DNA of 64,000 nt from Granulimonas faecalis. Lineage in GTDB: Bacteria > Actinomycetota > Coriobacteriia > Coriobacteriales > Atopobiaceae. Made by a program: the position numbers and the translations under genes. Location: positions 1,338,501 to 1,402,500 of the forward strand of contig NZ_BQKC01000001.1 in NCBI RefSeq assembly GCF_022834715.1, written 5' to 3'. This document shows positions 2,670 through 62,640 of the stretch, in pieces (the first letter of the stretch is position 1; each line of letters opens with the position of its first letter). The notes under the pieces are model-generated. The model made no database searches. It was given only the letters and a program-made list of their open reading frames with translations, and was not told the DNA's origin.

Positions 2670-3245
2670 ATGACCGCTCGCACCGAAGGTCCCCAGCCGT
2701 TCCGCATCGCCGCCGACACCACCCGTCAGCGCATCTTCATCGCCATCGGCGCCGTGGTGGCCGTGGCGTCGTTGTTCATCCTGGTGACGTCGGTGGGCTC
2801 CTACGGGGAGGCGCCGTGGCGCGTGTGGGCCTCCGCCACGGGCGTGGTCGTGGGCTCCGCCTGCGCCATCATCTTCATGCGCATGCTCCCCGAGCACCGC
2901 TGGGCCCTCGAGGTGGACGAACGCGGCATCACCGACAACTCCTCCTCCGCGGCCCCCGGCCTCATACCCTGGGACGACATCGCCGCCGTCTACGACTGGC
3001 AGGTGCGCCAGGGCCACACGCTGGCCATCGACCTCAAGGACCCGGAGGGCCTCCAGGGGCGCATGGCGCCCCACCCCGCGGCCAACGTCCGCGCGCGCCT
3101 CGCCCAGGGCATCCCGGCGGTCGAGGTCCGCGTGGCGGCGTTTCCCGGCTCCTACACCGTGGGCGAGGTGCTCGACGCCGCCCGGGCGTACCGCCCCAAG
3201 GCCGTGAAGCAGCCCCGCCGCTGGAAGGCGCCCAAGAAGCGCTAG
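2670..3245 (+). CDS. PH-like membrane protein, STM3941-like
   Basis: Function unknown. The 191-residue protein starts after GGAGGTCCC. Two membrane segments (residues ~20-42 and ~52-72) are followed by a soluble domain beginning EVDERGITD and containing LIPWDDIAAVYDW and AFPGSYTVGEVLDAA. This is the pattern of small bacterial PH-like membrane proteins of the STM3941 type. The gene near 55.3 kb is a clear paralogue: the segments DERGI-D, the W-D-(D/E)-(I/V) core and PG-YT-(V/C) align in the same order. The 3' end faces the phosphatase gene. Confidence 0.65.
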   Translation: MTARTEGPQPFRIAADTTRQRIFIAIGAVVAVASLFILVTSVGSYGEAPWRVWASATGVVVGSACAIIFMRMLPEHRWALEVDERGITDNSSSAAPGLIPWDDIAAVYDWQVRQGHTLAIDLKDPEGLQGRMAPHPAANVRARLAQGIPAVEVRVAAFPGSYTVGEVLDAARAYRPKAVKQPRRWKAPKKR

Positions 3246-13310: not shown

Positions 13311-13491
13311 CACGCCAACTTTGAAGTTGGTGCGCACTGGCCGGCCGGAGTGCACGCCAACTTTGAAGTTGGTGCGTGTCGGGAGCGTCCGGCAGCCGTT
13401 TTTTCGGCCGAAACGCGCTCCAACAATGAAGTTGGTGCGTACTTGCGAGCCGGCGCCGGCCGGAGTGCACGCCAACTCTAAAGTTGGCGCG
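13311..13491. repeat. four palindromes of the CCAA-N8-TTGG type, spaced 42, 63 and 52 bp
   Basis: Copies at 13311-13334, 13353-13376, 13416-13439 and 13468-13491 have the form CGCCAA-CTTTGAAG-TTGGTGCG, with small changes. They fill the otherwise gene-free 360 bases between the small protein and the frameshifted nuclease-like gene. The spacings equal about 4, 6 and 5 helical turns. Each arm-centre-arm unit is 22-24 bases and could form a hairpin or bind a dimeric protein. Confidence 0.85.
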
Positions 13492-13519
13492 TATTGGCCG
13501 CGCCCCTATCGGCAGCCTC

Positions 13520-14538
13520 TCACCACACCAGATGCCGCCCCAAGACAAACGCCCTCAGCGCCCTGCGCTCGACCAGCCTGTTGCAGCAAGGGCCCGTCGA
13601 CACCTTTGCACCGAGCTTTCGAGCAAGCTCCCTCACTTTGAGGTCGAAGGCCACCTCGTCCGAGACCATCGGCCATGTCCACCGCACAATGTCCAGGCCC
13701 CGCTCCTTCATCAGCGCGTCGCGAAGGCGGTCTTGCTCCATGGCCTCCCGCGAGTCAAAATGCCCTCCCCCGTCGTACTCCAGCCCCGCACCGTGATCTG
13801 GCCACAAGAAGTCGATCTCGCACCGCCGCTGCCCCCTCATAGCAAACACCTCGTTGCGGCTCAGGTGAATCGGGCTGTTGAGTGCCGGCTTGGGCAGCCC
13901 GTACCCGCCGTCGCGCGCAGAAAGGCAAGCAGCACGTTGAGAGCCGTCTCCATGGGAGAGCGCGAGCCGTCGGCAACGCAGTCCAAGACGCGGCAGACGT
14001 TTGTGCGCGAGAACCACAGCCCCTCGCACGTTTTCGCAAAGGAGCGGATAGAGGCCACCGAGGCGACCGGCTCGCACTGAACGGATGTGCCGGACGGGTC
14101 GTCAAACCGCGGGCTGTACCTGCCACAGAGAAGCGACACCACCACCGCCAGAGAGGCTGGCGAGAGAATCCGGGAGCGCATGAGCACGTAGAGCTCCGGC
14201 GACACCGTGAGCACGCCTTGTTCCGTGGAGCAGAGCGAGCCCTCGGCAAGGGGCATCGCCATGCGGTGCGCAACGAGCCCCTTCGCCCGATGGCGGGCCT
14301 TGCCTTCAGAGACAGCGAGATGCACGGGCACGTCGTCCTCGGGGGCGGCACCCGCCAGCACCCGCACATGCCCGTCGAGCTCGCGGCGCCATGGAAGGTC
14401 CCGCACGAGCGCGGCGTCTGCCGTCGTGCAGGTCGCCCTCTCCAGGGCGCGGTCTGCCTCTTCCTTCGGGACGCGGCGCAAAGGTGCTCGCGAGGCAAAA
14501 AGTGTCCAAGCATCCAGGTCGCACAGGACAATGCTCAT
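13520..14538 (-). pseudogene. frameshifted DUF559/Vsr-like nuclease-fold gene
   Basis: Two overlapping frames together match the intact 345-residue protein at 61.6-62.6 kb. The N-terminal part reads MSIVLCDLDAWTLFAS... to METALNVLLAFLRA. The C-terminal part continues in another frame with RDGGYGLPKPALNSPIHLS, then RRCEIDFLWPDHGAGLEYDG and the conserved D-R-L...G-DIVR-TW end of a Vsr/DUF559 fold. At the junction (around 13.92 kb) the intact copy has LPARRGGYGLP, and the codons here are short by about four bases. The result is a truncated product lacking the nuclease-like domain. A sequencing error is possible. Palindrome repeats start 29 bases beyond its 3' end. Confidence 0.75.
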
Positions 14539-14659
14539 GGGCCCAGTGTGCACGGGCGACCTGACCGGTTTTTGACCGATACCTGACAGTTTGCTGGCCG
14601 CGTCTGTCATTTATCGAGGTAGAGCTGCTTGTTTTTGGTTATGGAGGAATATTGGACCG

Positions 14660-55992: not shown

Positions 55993-57240
55993 ATGGCTTC
56001 CCTCCGCGGAAGGCGCGGCATCCTCGCCGCGTCCACCCTCCTGCTGCTCTTCCTCGGTCTCATCTACGCCTACTCGGTGGTCCTCGCGCCCATGAAGGAG
56101 CTCTGGGGGTGGTCCGTCTCGCAGATGACCCTCGTGTTCGCGCTCTCCATAGGGATGTTCACCCTCGGCGGCGTGGCCGGGGCCAGGATGAGCGGGCGCT
56201 GGGGCACCCGGGCCACGTTCATGGCGGCGGGCGTGCTGCTCGCCGCGGGGTTCGTGGGCTGCTCCGTCGCCGACGGGCCGCTGGCGTTCCCGATCACCTG
56301 CCTCTGCTACTGCGCGCTCTGCGCCCTGGGGATCGGCCTGGCCTACGACGTGCTCATCGCTGCCGTGACCGAGTGGTTCCCCGACCGCTGCGGGCTCGCC
56401 CAGGGCATCTGCCTCATGGGCTTTGGGATCGGCGGGTTCCTGCTGGGGCCGGCCGTGAGCTGGGTCTACGGCGTCGTGGAGTGGCGCGTGGTGCTGAGGG
56501 TGCTCGGCGCGGCGTTCCTCTGCATGCTTTGGGCCGCCTCCGCCGTGGTGGTGGAGCCGGCGGGCGCGGGGGCCGGCGCGGCCGATGAGGGCGGCGCAGA
56601 CGGCGGGCCCCTCGTGGCCGACCGCCGCTTCAGGCTTCTCTACCTGTGGCTCTTCCTGGTGTGCGGCGCCGGCATGGCCGTGACGGGCCTCGGGCGCGAG
56701 CTGCCGGCGAGCCTGGGGGCGGACGCCGTGACGGCGGCCTTCGTCATCGGGTTCGTGAACGTGGGGTCGGGCCTCGGGCGCCTTGTGGGCGGCGGGCTGG
56801 CGGACCGCTTCGGCGCGCCGGCGACCATCCGCGCCACGTCGGCCGCCATGGTGGCCTCGATCCTGGCGCTGCTCGGGTCCCTTGGCGCCGGAAGCCTTCC
56901 GATGCAGGCCGTGGCCCTTCTGGCCTGCGGGTTCTCTTGGGGCGTGGCCGTCATCATGATGACGTACGTGTGCGCCAAGGTGTGGGGGGCCGCCGCCATG
57001 GCAAAGAACCTGGCCGCCGTGAACACCTACAGCATCTTCGCCTCCCTGGCGGGCAGCTTTGGCGCCGGGCTCCTCGCCCAGGCGACGTCGTTCTCCGTGG
57101 CGCTGGGCACCGTATGCGCGCTGTGCGTGGTGGGGGTGGCCGTGGGCCGGCCCCTAGGCGCGGCCGTGGAGGGGCGCGACGGCTCGCGAGAGGCCGGGGC
57201 CGTGGGCGCCGGCGACCTCGTCGGTCGGCTCGACGGGTAG
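55993..57240 (+). CDS. MFS transporter, oxalate/formate antiporter-like
   Basis: A 415-residue major facilitator protein with twelve predicted membrane segments. It has LGLIYAYSVVLAPMKELWGWSVSQMTLVFALS at the N-terminus (typical of the OFA group), GLAYDVLIAAVTEWFPDRCGLAQGICLMGFGIGGFLL and GLGRLVGGGLADRFG. The substrate is a small organic anion at best; it is not certain. Translation begins with ATG after GAAAGGCCCC..., with spacing a little long. The gene ends 14 bases before the palindrome array. Confidence 0.85.
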   Translation: MASLRGRRGILAASTLLLLFLGLIYAYSVVLAPMKELWGWSVSQMTLVFALSIGMFTLGGVAGARMSGRWGTRATFMAAGVLLAAGFVGCSVADGPLAFPITCLCYCALCALGIGLAYDVLIAAVTEWFPDRCGLAQGICLMGFGIGGFLLGPAVSWVYGVVEWRVVLRVLGAAFLCMLWAASAVVVEPAGAGAGAADEGGADGGPLVADRRFRLLYLWLFLVCGAGMAVTGLGRELPASLGADAVTAAFVIGFVNVGSGLGRLVGGGLADRFGAPATIRATSAAMVASILALLGSLGAGSLPMQAVALLACGFSWGVAVIMMTYVCAKVWGAAAMAKNLAAVNTYSIFASLAGSFGAGLLAQATSFSVALGTVCALCVVGVAVGRPLGAAVEGRDGSREAGAVGAGDLVGRLDG

Positions 57241-57254
57241 GTGGGCGGTCCGAC

Positions 57255-57859
57255 CTGCAGCGGGTGGCCGGTTGGCGCAGGTCTCGGCCGGCAGGGGGCG
57301 CCGCGGCCTGCAGCAGGTAGCCAGTTAGCGCGCCTATCAACCGGCTGGGGCCGCTCCGAACTGCACCAGGTGGCTACTTGGCGCACCTATCGACCAGCAG
57401 GAGCCCCCCCGACCTGCACCAAGTAGCCAGTTGGTGCACCTCCCAGCCCGAAAAGCGCCCCCAACCTGCACCAAGTAGCTAGTTGGCGCACCTCTCGACC
57501 GGCAGGGACCATCGCGACCTGCACCAAGTAGCCAGTTGGTGCACTTTCCTACCGACGGAAGCCCCCCGACCTGCACCAGATAGCTAGTTGGTGCACCTCC
57601 CTACCGGCAAGAGCCGCCCCCACCTGCACCAAGTAGCCAGGTGGTGCACCTATCGACCGGAAAAGCGCATCCGACCTGCACCAAGTAGCCAGTTGGTGCA
57701 CCCATCGACCGGCAGGGGCCTCCGCGACCTGCGCCAGGTAGCTACTTGGTGCACCTATCGGCCCGAAAAGCGCCTCCAACATGCACCAGGTAGCTAGTTG
57801 GTGCACATCCCGACCGGCAGAAGCCTCCGCGACCTGCACCAGGTGGCTACTTGGCGCAC
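57255..57859. repeat. twelve palindromes at 52-53 bp intervals
   Basis: 26-base units of the form CTGCACCAA-GTAGC(C/T)AG-TTGGTGCAC start at 57255, 57308, 57361, 57414, 57466, 57519, 57571, 57624, 57676, 57729, 57781 and 57834. The first two and the last are more diverged. Between units, 26-27 bases are partly conserved (CGACCGGCAGG...GCC). It fills the 636 bases between the convergent MFS and PfkB genes. Outer arms are the same as in the 13.3-13.5 kb array. Confidence 0.95.
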
Positions 57860-57876
57860 CTCTCAACCGGCGGCCG

Positions 57877-58875
57877 CTAGCGGATGATGGAGCCGCGGGC
57901 GTCGCCGGTGACGATCCGCTCGATGGTGGCCTCGTCGGCCCAGGAGAGCTCTCCCTCCACGGTGGCCTTGTAGGCGGCGTGCGCCACGGCATAGTCCAGC
58001 GTGTGCTGGGCGTCCCAGCGGTTGAGCAGCCCGTGGACGATGGAGGCCGAGAAGGCGTCGCCGCAACCGGACTGCTCCATGGGCGCCACGTCGCGGGAGC
58101 GCGAGCGGAACAGGCCCTTCTCGGAGAGCAGCATGCCCCGCACCGAGAGGAGCCCCCCGGCGTCCACGTCGCGGCGGTTCATGGCCAGCGACTGGATGCC
58201 GTTGGCCGTCATGAGCCGGTCGGCGGCCGCGGCGCACTGGTCGCCGTCGCCCTCAAAGCCCTCCCGCTCCCAGATGCCCACGTAGTCCTCGTCGGAGCCG
58301 CACACCACGTCCACATAGGGCAGCAGCCGCCCCCAAAGCTCGCGGGCGGCTGCAGGCGTGATCATGCCGCGGCGGAAGTTGAGGTCGCAGAAGGTGCGGA
58401 TGCCCCGTCCCTTGGAGGCCACGAGGGCGTCTTCCACCACGTCGCCGAGGGTGGACGTGATGGAGGCCACGACCCCGGAGAAGTAGAACGACCCTACGCC
58501 GTTGAGCAGGCCGTCCCAGTCAAAATCGTCCCGTCCCACGTCGCGCATGGCGGTGCCGTCGCGGTCGTAGAGGACGCGGTCGGGGCGCACGGTGCCGCCG
58601 CGCTCCACGTAATAGACGCCCAGGCGGCAGTCGGCCCGCTGCACGCGGCTGACGTCCACGCCAAACCGGCGGAGCTCCATGAGGGAGCGCTCCCCCAGCG
58701 TGTTGGACGACACCACCGAGGCCAGGGCCACGTCGTCGCCCTGGAGGGCCAGGGACTTGGCCACGGTGACCTCGGAGCCGGCAAAGGCCATGGAGAGCTG
58801 GTCGGTCTGATGGAGCATGAGGGGCGGACGCGGGGAGAGGCGCAGGACCGGCTCGCCCAGGCACAGGACCTTCAA
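57877..58875 (-). CDS. PfkB family sugar kinase (2-keto-3-deoxygluconate kinase-like)
   Basis: Phosphorylates a sugar or sugar acid with ATP. The 332-residue protein has the N-terminal MKVLCLGEPVLRLSP, FAGSEVTVAKSLALQGDDVALASVV, the C-terminal signature EQSGCGDAFSASIVHGLL with the catalytic Asp, and the FCDLNFR block. The Cys in G-C-G-D replaces the more common Ala. KdgK-like assignment rests on overall pattern. Ribosome site AAGGAAAACGTTG. It is encoded alone, next to the palindrome array. Confidence 0.88.
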   Translation of the reverse strand: MKVLCLGEPVLRLSPRPPLMLHQTDQLSMAFAGSEVTVAKSLALQGDDVALASVVSSNTLGERSLMELRRFGVDVSRVQRADCRLGVYYVERGGTVRPDRVLYDRDGTAMRDVGRDDFDWDGLLNGVGSFYFSGVVASITSTLGDVVEDALVASKGRGIRTFCDLNFRRGMITPAAARELWGRLLPYVDVVCGSDEDYVGIWEREGFEGDGDQCAAAADRLMTANGIQSLAMNRRDVDAGGLLSVRGMLLSEKGLFRSRSRDVAPMEQSGCGDAFSASIVHGLLNRWDAQHTLDYAVAHAAYKATVEGELSWADEATIERIVTGDARGSIIR

Positions 58876-61602: not shown

Positions 61603-62640
61603 ATGGCACTCATCGTCCACGACTGGTGCGCCCGCGCGGCGTACCTCTCGGGAATCACCCTCGCCCCCGTCCCGGACGAGGAGGCGGCCATCGCCCTGGC
61701 ATCCGCGACGGCCAACATGCGCGACATGGACGGGGCACCGGCCCTGGACGCCCTCTCCCGCTGGGAGCCGTCGTTCAGGCCGGTGGTGAACGGGGCCCGC
61801 AGGCGCCCCGAGAACGAGCCCCTCCCCATACCGTGCCTCGTGGGCACCGACGCCGCCCGTCGGCACGGCGGCAGCATCGGCTGCAGGCGCTGGGGCGTGG
61901 GGCTGCCCCACGGGGCGCTCGTGCGCCTCGACGACCCGTCCGACCCGCCCGAACTGGGCGTCTTCGCCCCCTCCCCCGCATTTCACTGGCTGCTCCGCAC
62001 GCGTGGCCTCGGCTTCGGGCAGGCCCTCCTCCTGGGATGCGAGCTGTGCGGCACCTACTCCATGGCGCCCCAAGGCATGAGGAGGCGGCCGGGCCCGCTG
62101 ACGACGCCCGGCGAGGTGGCAGATCTCCTCGCCTCCGTGCCGGACGGCGCGAGGCACGTCTCCACGGCCCGCTCGGCCGCCCCGCACCTGCTCGACGGAT
62201 GCGCCTCCCCGCGTGAGGCGGCGACCGTCCTCTACGCCTCGCTCCCCGCGCGCCGCGGCGGTTACGGTCTCCCCGAGCCGCAGCGCAACCACCCGGTGGC
62301 CCTCAACGCTCGGGCGCGGGCCCTGCTCCCCGCAAAGCGGGCGATCTACCTCGACCTCGCATGGCCCGAGAGCCACCTGGCCGTCGAGTACGACTCCCAC
62401 GGCCACGAGGAGGGCATGCGCCCCCTCGAGGACAAGGACCGCCTGGTGGCCGCCGCCCACATGGGCTTTGAGATCCTGCCCCTGACACCCAACATGGCAG
62501 ACCGCCGGGAGCGCCTGGACGCCTTCATGGAAGAGGTGGCGGACAGGCTCGGCGTGAGGCAGCGGCCGCTCTGCCGCTCGACCCTCGAGAGGCGCGCCCG
62601 CCTGCATCGGGAGCTCTTCACCCCGTGGAACCTTTGGTGA
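61603..62640 (+). CDS. DUF559/Vsr-like nuclease-fold protein (intact paralogue)
   Basis: A 345-residue protein not recognised as a named family. The N-terminal 250 residues are poorly characterised. The C-terminal ~100 residues have GGYGLPEPQRNHPVALN, RAIYLDLAWPESHLAVEYDSHGH and EDKDRLVAAAHMGFEILPLTPNM, matching the restriction-endonuclease-like fold of DUF559/Vsr (D-x-W-P...E-Y-D...D-R...L...G). The start follows GGGAGGATCC. The frameshifted copy at 13.5-14.5 kb is a paralogue with identical block order. A defence or DNA-repair role is guesswork. Confidence 0.75.
   Translation: MALIVHDWCARAAYLSGITLAPVPDEEAAIALASATANMRDMDGAPALDALSRWEPSFRPVVNGARRRPENEPLPIPCLVGTDAARRHGGSIGCRRWGVGLPHGALVRLDDPSDPPELGVFAPSPAFHWLLRTRGLGFGQALLLGCELCGTYSMAPQGMRRRPGPLTTPGEVADLLASVPDGARHVSTARSAAPHLLDGCASPREAATVLYASLPARRGGYGLPEPQRNHPVALNARARALLPAKRAIYLDLAWPESHLAVEYDSHGHEEGMRPLEDKDRLVAAAHMGFEILPLTPNMADRRERLDAFMEEVADRLGVRQRPLCRSTLERRARLHRELFTPWNLW

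What the first reader, a model, noticed from the sequence alone, without database searches (positions are those of the whole stretch)
57255..57859. Array of twelve 26-bp palindromes with 52-53 bp steps, five helical turns
Twelve copies of a unit with GCACCAA and TTGGTGC arms and an 8-base centre occur at alternating 53 and 52 base steps (mean about 52.6), so all dyads face the same side of the helix. Spacers are partly conserved, unlike CRISPR. It lies between convergent genes, so a simple promoter role is unlikely. It may nucleate a protein filament, a chromosome-organisation site, or hairpins at transcript ends.
Basis: seen in the sequence. Interest (0 to 1): 0.85.

Follow-up and report, generated by a model that had tools for sequence, protein, structure and literature searches.

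The report
Helically phased palindrome arrays between genes
This bacterium carries tandem arrays of short palindromes between its genes, spaced a whole number of DNA turns apart (four, five or six), and unrelated palindromes in the same genome and in a sister genus follow the same rule, which suggests docking platforms for proteins that must sit on one face of the DNA.

Summary
The array is real: 12 imperfect 24-bp palindromes (TGCACCAA-N8-TTGGTGCA, family 'P1'), window 57256-57858, steps 53,53,53,52,53,52,53,52,53,52,53, between convergent MFS and PfkB genes. The 53/52 alternation largely reflects a 105-bp two-unit duplication, so this array alone is weak evidence for helical phasing.

The wider genome supports it. 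P1 occurs at seven other loci with steps of 42, 52/53, 62/63 (one 50). An unrelated family, P3 (CCATGCC-N12-GGCATGG, 12 loci), gives 52/53, 42, 62, 75, although its spacers are near-random between loci. A third array has 42-43 bp steps. A different palindrome in the sister genus occurs as pairs 53-54 bp apart. Outside the main array, 30 P1/P3 steps fit a 10.5-bp period best; the eight non-five-turn steps give p = 5e-5.

P1 is absent from 139 family genomes and 84,980 species genomes; the syntenic site in the nearest relative is empty. P1/P3 loci avoid a 0.94-Mb Ter-containing arc (p = 0.002, post hoc).

Best reading: tandem operators for dimeric proteins that contact across looped DNA, following the whole-turn rule known for Tn3 res sites. 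The protein is unidentified. Nearest known kind: REP/BIME-type extragenic palindromes.

The parts
57256..57279 (.). P1 palindrome 1 (degenerate)
   Evidence: 4 mismatches to the arms; register kept (+53 to next)
57309..57332 (.). P1 palindrome 2 (degenerate)
   Evidence: 4 mismatches to the arms; +53
57362..57385 (.). P1 palindrome 3
   Evidence: +53
57415..57438 (.). P1 palindrome 4
   Evidence: exact arms; +52
57467..57490 (.). P1 palindrome 5
   Evidence: +53
57520..57543 (.). P1 palindrome 6
   Evidence: exact arms; +52
57572..57595 (.). P1 palindrome 7
   Evidence: +53
57625..57648 (.). P1 palindrome 8
   Evidence: +52
57677..57700 (.). P1 palindrome 9
   Evidence: exact arms; +53
57730..57753 (.). 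P1 palindrome 10
   Evidence: +52
57782..57805 (.). P1 palindrome 11
   Evidence: +53
57835..57858 (.). P1 palindrome 12 (last)
57355..57873 (.). four overlapping 204-nt repeats offset by 105 bp: the two-unit higher-order repeat that explains the 53/52 alternation
   Evidence: family D1 (77-81% identity)
13311..13334 (.). second P1 array in the window (C1:1351.8k), palindrome 1
   Evidence: +42 to next
13353..13376 (.). second P1 array, palindrome 2
   Evidence: +63
13416..13439 (.). second P1 array, palindrome 3
   Evidence: +52
13468..13491 (.). second P1 array, palindrome 4; the spacers of the 42- and 52-step intervals can be aligned with a single 10-bp gap
   Evidence: by eye
55993..57240 (+). 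MFS transporter (PF07690), left flanking gene; stop codon about 15 bp before palindrome 1
57877..58875 (-). PfkB-family sugar kinase (PF00294), right flanking gene; 3' end 18 bp after palindrome 12

Best explanation
The feature is one member of a class of extragenic tandem palindrome arrays in this genome. SHOWN: the palindromes are sequence-conserved dyads, their neighbours sit at whole-turn distances (five turns preferred, four and six tolerated, one possible seven), and the rule is shared by unrelated palindrome families and by a sister genus. INFERRED: each palindrome is a double-stranded-DNA site for a symmetric, sequence-specific protein (a different protein, or diverged paralogue, per family). 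Dimers on successive palindromes touch each other by bending or looping the roughly 20-40 bp between them, which works only if they face the same side of the helix. This is the same geometric rule as the site I - site II spacing of Tn3-family res sites. An array of 12 would nucleate a compact multi-dimer complex at gene ends, most likely with an architectural role in the chromosome, or as part of a mobile-repeat system, rather than acting as a promoter operator.
For: Main array geometry. Other P1 arrays: 53,52 / 53,42 / 42,63,52 / 50,53,52 / 52,62. Unrelated family P3, found in a scan open to any step of about 20-110 bp and then listed genome-wide: 53,52 / 52,52 / 53,42 / 52,52 / 53 / 52,53,53 / 53 / 52,53 / 62,53,75. 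P3 spacers between loci are barely above random in their middle (33.0% against 30.1 +/- 1.1% shuffled), so the length is kept while the sequence is not. Over 30 steps outside the main array the best period in a 0.25-bp scan is 10.50 bp (mean cosine 0.91; 0.68 at 10.25 and 0.65 at 10.75); the eight steps that are not five-turn lie on average 0.75 bp from a whole turn, p = 5e-5 against uniform lengths. A third array (C1:966.1k) has steps 43,42,42 and then 84 between palindromes passing the hairpin filter, consistent with an intervening degraded unit. Sister genus: palindrome ACGTGAATTCACGT in pairs at 53,53,53,54 (G027) and 53,54,53 (G028); one pair is orthologous, with the same spacing in both genomes. 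Mismatches show no consistent strand bias (G.T 33 against A.C 22 in P1; 18 against 25 in P3), as expected for duplex DNA and not for a one-strand RNA hairpin. In the literature the Tn3-family res site I-II distance is generally 5 helical turns and varies from 4 to 7, with phasing important (PMC12217951).
Against: No protein has been identified. One P1 step (50) is 2.5 bp out of phase and one P3 step (75) 1.5 bp. Steps within an array are not independent, and the main array grew by dimer duplication. P1 and P3 spacers share a loose T-tract plus CGGC motif (by eye), so the two families may not be wholly independent. Outer arms in the G027/G028 family change on both sides together, which would also fit hairpin selection.
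Confidence: 0.5

Rival explanations
1. REP/BIME-type mobile repeat: the palindromes are non-autonomous elements spread by a Y1 (RAYT-like) transposase; the fixed step comes from the geometry or ancestry of the moving unit, not from a function of the array.
For: Extragenic, mostly at gene 3' ends. Two RAYT-like genes are present. Five of nine multi-unit P3 arrays sit beside a copy of the repeat that flanks RAYT L147 (by eye). Empty syntenic site in G028. Pseudomonas REP doublets also have preferred distances and ordered tandem arrays (PMC3116915).
Against: Each RAYT-like gene is flanked by its own, different inverted repeat, not by P1 or P3. P3 spacers do not share clear ancestry between loci yet keep their length. 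Y1 transposition uses single strands (general knowledge), so a 10.5-bp rule is not expected. P1/P3 avoid the Ter arc while the RAYT repeats do not (14 of 46 loci inside).
Confidence: 0.25
2. Transcript-end hairpins: the palindromes act in RNA as tandem (bidirectional) terminators or stabilisers at gene 3' ends.
For: 20 of 22 arrays or sites have at least one neighbouring gene ending towards them, and convergent position is enriched (7/22 against 13%). P3 often reads AAAACCC-palindrome-GGGTTTT. Hairpins are stable, and the main array folds better than block shuffles (-298 and -338 against -237 +/- 7 kcal/mol).
Against: RNA hairpins have no reason to be spaced by 10.5 bp. The main array has no T-tract after its palindromes and P1 T-tracts do not match gene direction at 1651k. 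No consistent G.U bias. In P3, re-dealing right arms among sites costs no pairs (279 re-dealt against 274 observed), so sequence rather than pairing is what is conserved.
Confidence: 0.15
3. Neutral satellite: an ancestral two-unit element amplified by slippage; spacing is just ancestry.
For: 105-bp higher-order period in the main array with two spacer classes.
Against: Explains only the main array. It does not explain whole-turn length changes elsewhere (42, 62, 63), the same rule in unrelated families, or P3 spacers that have lost similarity but kept length.
Confidence: 0.1

Closest known systems
REP / BIME elements (repetitive extragenic palindromes)
   Same: 20-40 bp palindromes, extragenic, tandem clusters with regular spacing and alternating spacer types; P3 arrays often adjoin RAYT-flanking repeats
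   Different: about 30 sites per family rather than >100; no end tag seen; cognate RAYT not found for P1; whole-turn quantisation not mentioned in the passages of the REP papers searched
Tn3-family res sites (serine resolvase)
   Same: dyads of about 25-30 bp; neighbour distance 5 turns, tolerated 4-7, phase-dependent (PMC12217951). In the three G027/G028 loci read, a CTACGTG half-site lies 34-35 bp before the 53-bp pair (counted by hand), which recalls a tripartite site
   Different: no linked recombinase; up to 12 units; no tripartite layout in P1/P3; no serine-recombinase motif in the sampled 45% of the genome
Noc / SlmA binding sites (nucleoid occlusion)
   Same: sequence-specific sites (Noc sites palindromic) avoiding the terminus region (PMC4331003); multi-protein complexes on DNA
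   Different: here in phased arrays, two families, arc not centred on Ter; no Noc or SlmA homologue searched for
CRISPR arrays
   Same: regular repeat-spacer appearance
   Different: spacers are similar to each other, the repeats are dyads with variable centres, flanking genes are MFS and PfkB

Membership tests
REP/BIME | short extragenic palindromes of 20-40 bp | tested here: met
REP/BIME | high copy number (usually >100 per genome) | tested here: not met
   31 P1 sites and about 30 P3 sites
REP/BIME | GTAG- or CGTC-type tag at one end of the palindrome | tested here: not met
   by inspection of aligned units with flanks; GTAG occurs only in the centre of P1
REP/BIME | a RAYT gene flanked by the same palindrome | tested here: not met
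   both RAYT-like genes of the genome carry other flanking repeats
Tn3-family res site | dyads at 5 turns centre to centre, 4-7 allowed, in phase | tested here: met
Tn3-family res site | about 120-bp site of three subsites I, II, III | tested here: not met
   P1 arrays show no consistent extra half-site within 90 bp of their ends; only the G027/G028 elements resemble it
Tn3-family res site | adjacent serine resolvase gene | tested here: inconclusive
   none among flanking genes; motif scan of about 45% of the genome negative; whole genome not searched
Noc/SlmA-type sites | sites excluded from the terminus region | tested here: inconclusive
   0 of 16 independent P1/P3 loci in a 942-kb arc holding the GC-skew switch, p = 0.002, post hoc
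Noc/SlmA-type sites | bound by a ParB-like or TetR-like division inhibitor | not tested
   no whole-genome search was left
CRISPR | unrelated equal-length spacers with cas genes nearby | tested here: not met
   spacers 63-74% alike; neighbours MFS and PfkB
intrinsic terminator | GC-rich hairpin followed by a T-tract | tested here: not met
   no T-tract after the main-array palindromes; present beside many P3 units

The most novel reading that the evidence does not exclude
A previously undescribed chromosome-organising element: lineage-specific palindromes whose sequence turns over between genera while the geometry (dyads at 4, 5 or 6 whole turns, five preferred) is conserved. They would be bound by co-evolving dimeric proteins that build multi-dimer complexes at gene ends and are excluded from the terminus arc, as nucleoid-occlusion sites are in Bacillus and E. 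coli.
Probability: 0.25. Interest if true: 0.9.

Novelty: new variant of a known kind. Interest (0 to 1): 0.72.

Why it matters
Extragenic palindromes have been catalogued for decades with little agreement on what they do. A strict whole-turn spacing rule that survives complete change of the palindrome sequence points to a protein-on-duplex-DNA function and makes it testable with simple half-turn against full-turn insertions. If the Ter avoidance holds, it would offer a handle on chromosome organisation or nucleoid occlusion in a lineage where, to my knowledge, no factor is known.

Tried and rejected
(1) Coding repeat: the 105-bp period equals 35 codons, but all frames have stops or shift within the array. 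(2) Known RNA family: none in Rfam. (3) Phage or plasmid origin: no similarity in phage or plasmid collections, no P1 hit in viral contigs, no P3 or G027-type pairs in viral contigs. (4) Wide occurrence of the P1 sequence: 0 hits in 84,980 species genomes and none recognisable in 139 family genomes. A looser two-site pattern returned 66 stretches, none titled as a coriobacterium and none read as the same family. (5) A second palindrome in the middle of the spacer: no consistent symmetry peak. (6) A nuclease-fold (DUF559/Vsr-like by motif, no Pfam hit) gene family as the cognate protein. P3 sites flank one such gene, a P1 array abuts a frameshifted copy, and the G027/G028 pair abuts one, but the family is multi-copy in almost every genome and flanks of 27 further members show no clear arrays, so it is only a lead. 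(7) RAYT as the P1 mobiliser: own RAYTs have other repeats. (8) Serine recombinase near the sites: none by motif in the sampled sequence.

Full report
OBSERVATION. The window holds twelve copies of an imperfect 24-bp palindrome, TGCACCAA-N8-TTGGTGCA (called P1 here), from 57256 to 57858, with steps 53,53,53,52,53,52,53,52,53,52,53. Ten are good and the first two are worn. The core CCARST-N4-ASYTGG occurs 22 times in the whole 2.23-Mb genome and never in the reversed control, and every hit is one of these sites. The array lies between convergent MFS and PfkB genes, with 15-20 bp to spare on each side. No reading frame runs through it and no Rfam family matches.

WHAT THE REGULARITY OF THIS ARRAY PROVES. 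The array has a 105-bp higher-order period: spacers two steps apart are 70-74% alike, neighbouring ones 63-64%. It therefore grew at least in part by duplication of a two-unit block, and the 52/53 alternation is inherited. The palindromes (83-87% alike) are better kept than the spacers, and spacer length shows no net change beyond the 52/53 difference despite about 30% divergence. That suggests, but does not prove, a length constraint.

OTHER ARRAYS OF THE SAME FAMILY. P1 occurs at seven more loci, five of them arrays: C1:410k (53,52), 414k (53,42), 1351k, also inside this window at 13311-13491 (42,63,52), 1651k (50,53,52) and 1878k (52,62); 425k and 1700k are single sites. At 1351k the 42- and 52-step spacers can be aligned with one clean 10-bp gap (by eye). 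These arrays have partly different arms (GCACCAA, GCTCCAA, ACGCCAA).

AN UNRELATED FAMILY WITH THE SAME RULE. A de novo scan for neighbouring similar dyads, open to any step between about 20 and 110 bp, in up to 925 kb of this genome turned up further arrays. A genome-wide pattern search made without regard to spacing then listed the second family, P3 = CCATGCC-N12-GGCATGG: 24 exact sites here, and at most a few scattered hits in some of the other 139 family genomes, read as background. Its steps are 53,52 / 52,52 / 53,42 / 52,52 / 53 / 52,53,53 / 53 / 52,53 / 62,53,75. Between loci the middle of the P3 spacers is 33.0% identical against 30.1 +/- 1.1% for shuffles: nearly unrelated sequence of constant length. 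This is the strongest single argument that the length is imposed. A third array (966.1k, GTGMGGAG..CTCCKCAC) has steps 43,42,42 and 84 between units passing the filter.

STATISTICS. Outside the main array there are 30 P1/P3 steps: 52 (11), 53 (11), 42 (3), 62 (2), 63, 50, 75. In a scan from 8.5 to 13 bp in 0.25-bp steps the mean cosine peaks at 10.50 bp (0.91). The eight steps that are not five turns lie on average 0.75 bp from a whole turn, p = 5e-5 against uniform lengths of 36-80 bp. This assumes independence of steps, which is only approximate; the 50 step is clearly out of phase.

RELATIVES. P1 is absent from 139 other genomes of the family, from 84,980 species genomes and from viral contigs. 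In the nearest relative found (G028, PfkB 67% identical, same MFS-PfkB-ThrRS order) the intergenic site is empty. But G028 and G027 (one sister genus) carry a different palindrome, ACGTGAATTCACGT, in tandem pairs at 53,53,53,54 (G027) and 53,54,53 (G028) bp. One pair is orthologous and keeps its spacing in both. Copies at other loci change arms on both sides together (GCTACGTG..CACGTAGC, CACTCCGTG..CACGGAGTG). In the loci read, a CTACGTG half-site lies 34-35 bp before the pair (hand count). So the sequence turns over between genera while the geometry stays.

CONTEXT. Of 22 arrays or single sites, 7 are convergent, 13 tandem and 2 divergent; the background is 13%, 69% and 18% (simple gene caller). 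Contig C1 begins at dnaA (by motif), and the GC skew switches at about 1.05-1.10 Mb. All 16 independent P1/P3 loci lie outside 0.41-1.35 Mb; the chance of so large a gap is 0.002. This was noticed afterwards and the arc is not centred on Ter. Two other extragenic repeats of the same genome, those flanking its RAYT-like genes, do occur there (14 of 46 sampled loci). The 966k array lies inside the arc but belongs to a third family.

MECHANISM. Whole-turn spacing in duplex DNA is the signature of proteins that must face the same side. Adjacent dyads 42-63 bp apart leave roughly 20-40 bp between them, too far for simple side-by-side contact, so contact by looping or wrapping is inferred. The closest documented geometry is the site I to site II distance in Tn3-family res sites, generally 5 turns and 4 to 7 tolerated with phase important (PMC12217951). 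The absence of a consistent strand bias in mismatches, and the conservation of P3 arm sequence rather than pairing, argue for sequence-specific binding to duplex DNA over RNA hairpins; the G027/G028 arms, which do covary, keep the hairpin reading alive there. I therefore favour arrays of operators for dimeric proteins forming a multi-dimer complex; which protein, and to what end, is not known.

COMPARISON WITH THE KNOWN. As a kind, these are extragenic palindrome clusters, nearest to REP/BIME elements. They fail three defining features of REPs that I could test (copy number, end tag, cognate RAYT), so I do not file them there, although five of nine multi-unit P3 arrays adjoin a repeat that flanks one of the RAYT genes and BIME-2 elements do bind gyrase (PMC6379681). 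They share the spacing rule but not the layout or a linked recombinase with res sites. They share terminus avoidance with Noc and SlmA sites (PMC4331003).

LIMITS. Literature was limited to open-access full text; no paper found there reports whole-turn spacing of extragenic palindromes.

Noticed in passing
G000 C1 0.41-1.35 Mb (window lies at C1:1338501-1402500): P1 and P3 loci are missing from a 942-kb arc containing the GC-skew switch (Ter), while RAYT-linked repeats are present there.
   Followed up: partly
L146 (C1:2023.7k) and L147 (C1:1621.5k): Two RAYT-like Y1 transposase genes, each flanked by its own inverted repeat (GGACAAAAGTGTCC; GTGACAGATGGxCCAGGCACC) that is dispersed through the genome; the first repeat often comes as a 22-bp tandem pair, e.g. 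window 4170/4192; the second is at window 45589.
   Followed up: partly
window 61603-62637 and about 13500-14600; L296; L194 10177-11187: A multi-copy family of about 340-aa proteins with a DxxW..VEYDS..H motif (nuclease-fold-like by motif, no Pfam hit), 10 in this genome and present in 132 of 140 family genomes; the copy at window 13.5-14.6k is frameshifted. Several sit beside palindrome arrays.
   Followed up: partly
L162 6096-6332 (C1:966.1k): Array of 28-bp palindromes GTGMGGAG..CTCCKCAC with 42-43 bp steps between an HTH gene and the peptide deformylase gene.
   Followed up: partly
L201 13440-13600 (C1:373.4k): Cluster of CCCGCAG..CTGCGGG palindromes with steps 30 and 41, next to the RAYT-type repeat.
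   Followed up: no
L198 12800-12930 and 14250-14390 (C1:192.8k, 194.2k); L231 10595 in G027: A palindrome family TCGGTGAGTG..CACTCACCGA with about 30-bp steps shared between this genome and the sister genus.
   Followed up: no
L126 around 2900-3130 (G028, between PfkB and ThrRS): Inverted set of half-sites and a palindrome GCCTACTAAGTACTTAGTAGGC with repeated half-sites about 29 bp apart.
   Followed up: no
L206 469-620 (C1:1460.5k): Tandem 36-bp and 24-bp repeats GAAGGTACCTCCATAGGTACC / TACCAACGATAGGTGCCGCG.
   Followed up: no
L173 12380-12600 (C2:72.4k): CRISPR-like array (GTCGCACCCCGCAGGGGTGCGTGTGTTGAAAC) on the second contig, about 2 kb from an IS200-type transposase.
   Followed up: no
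L001 1840-2060 (C1:410.3k): Cluster of AAGGGGCCCTT / AGTAAGGGGGCCTT inverted repeats just downstream of the 410k P1 array.
   Followed up: no
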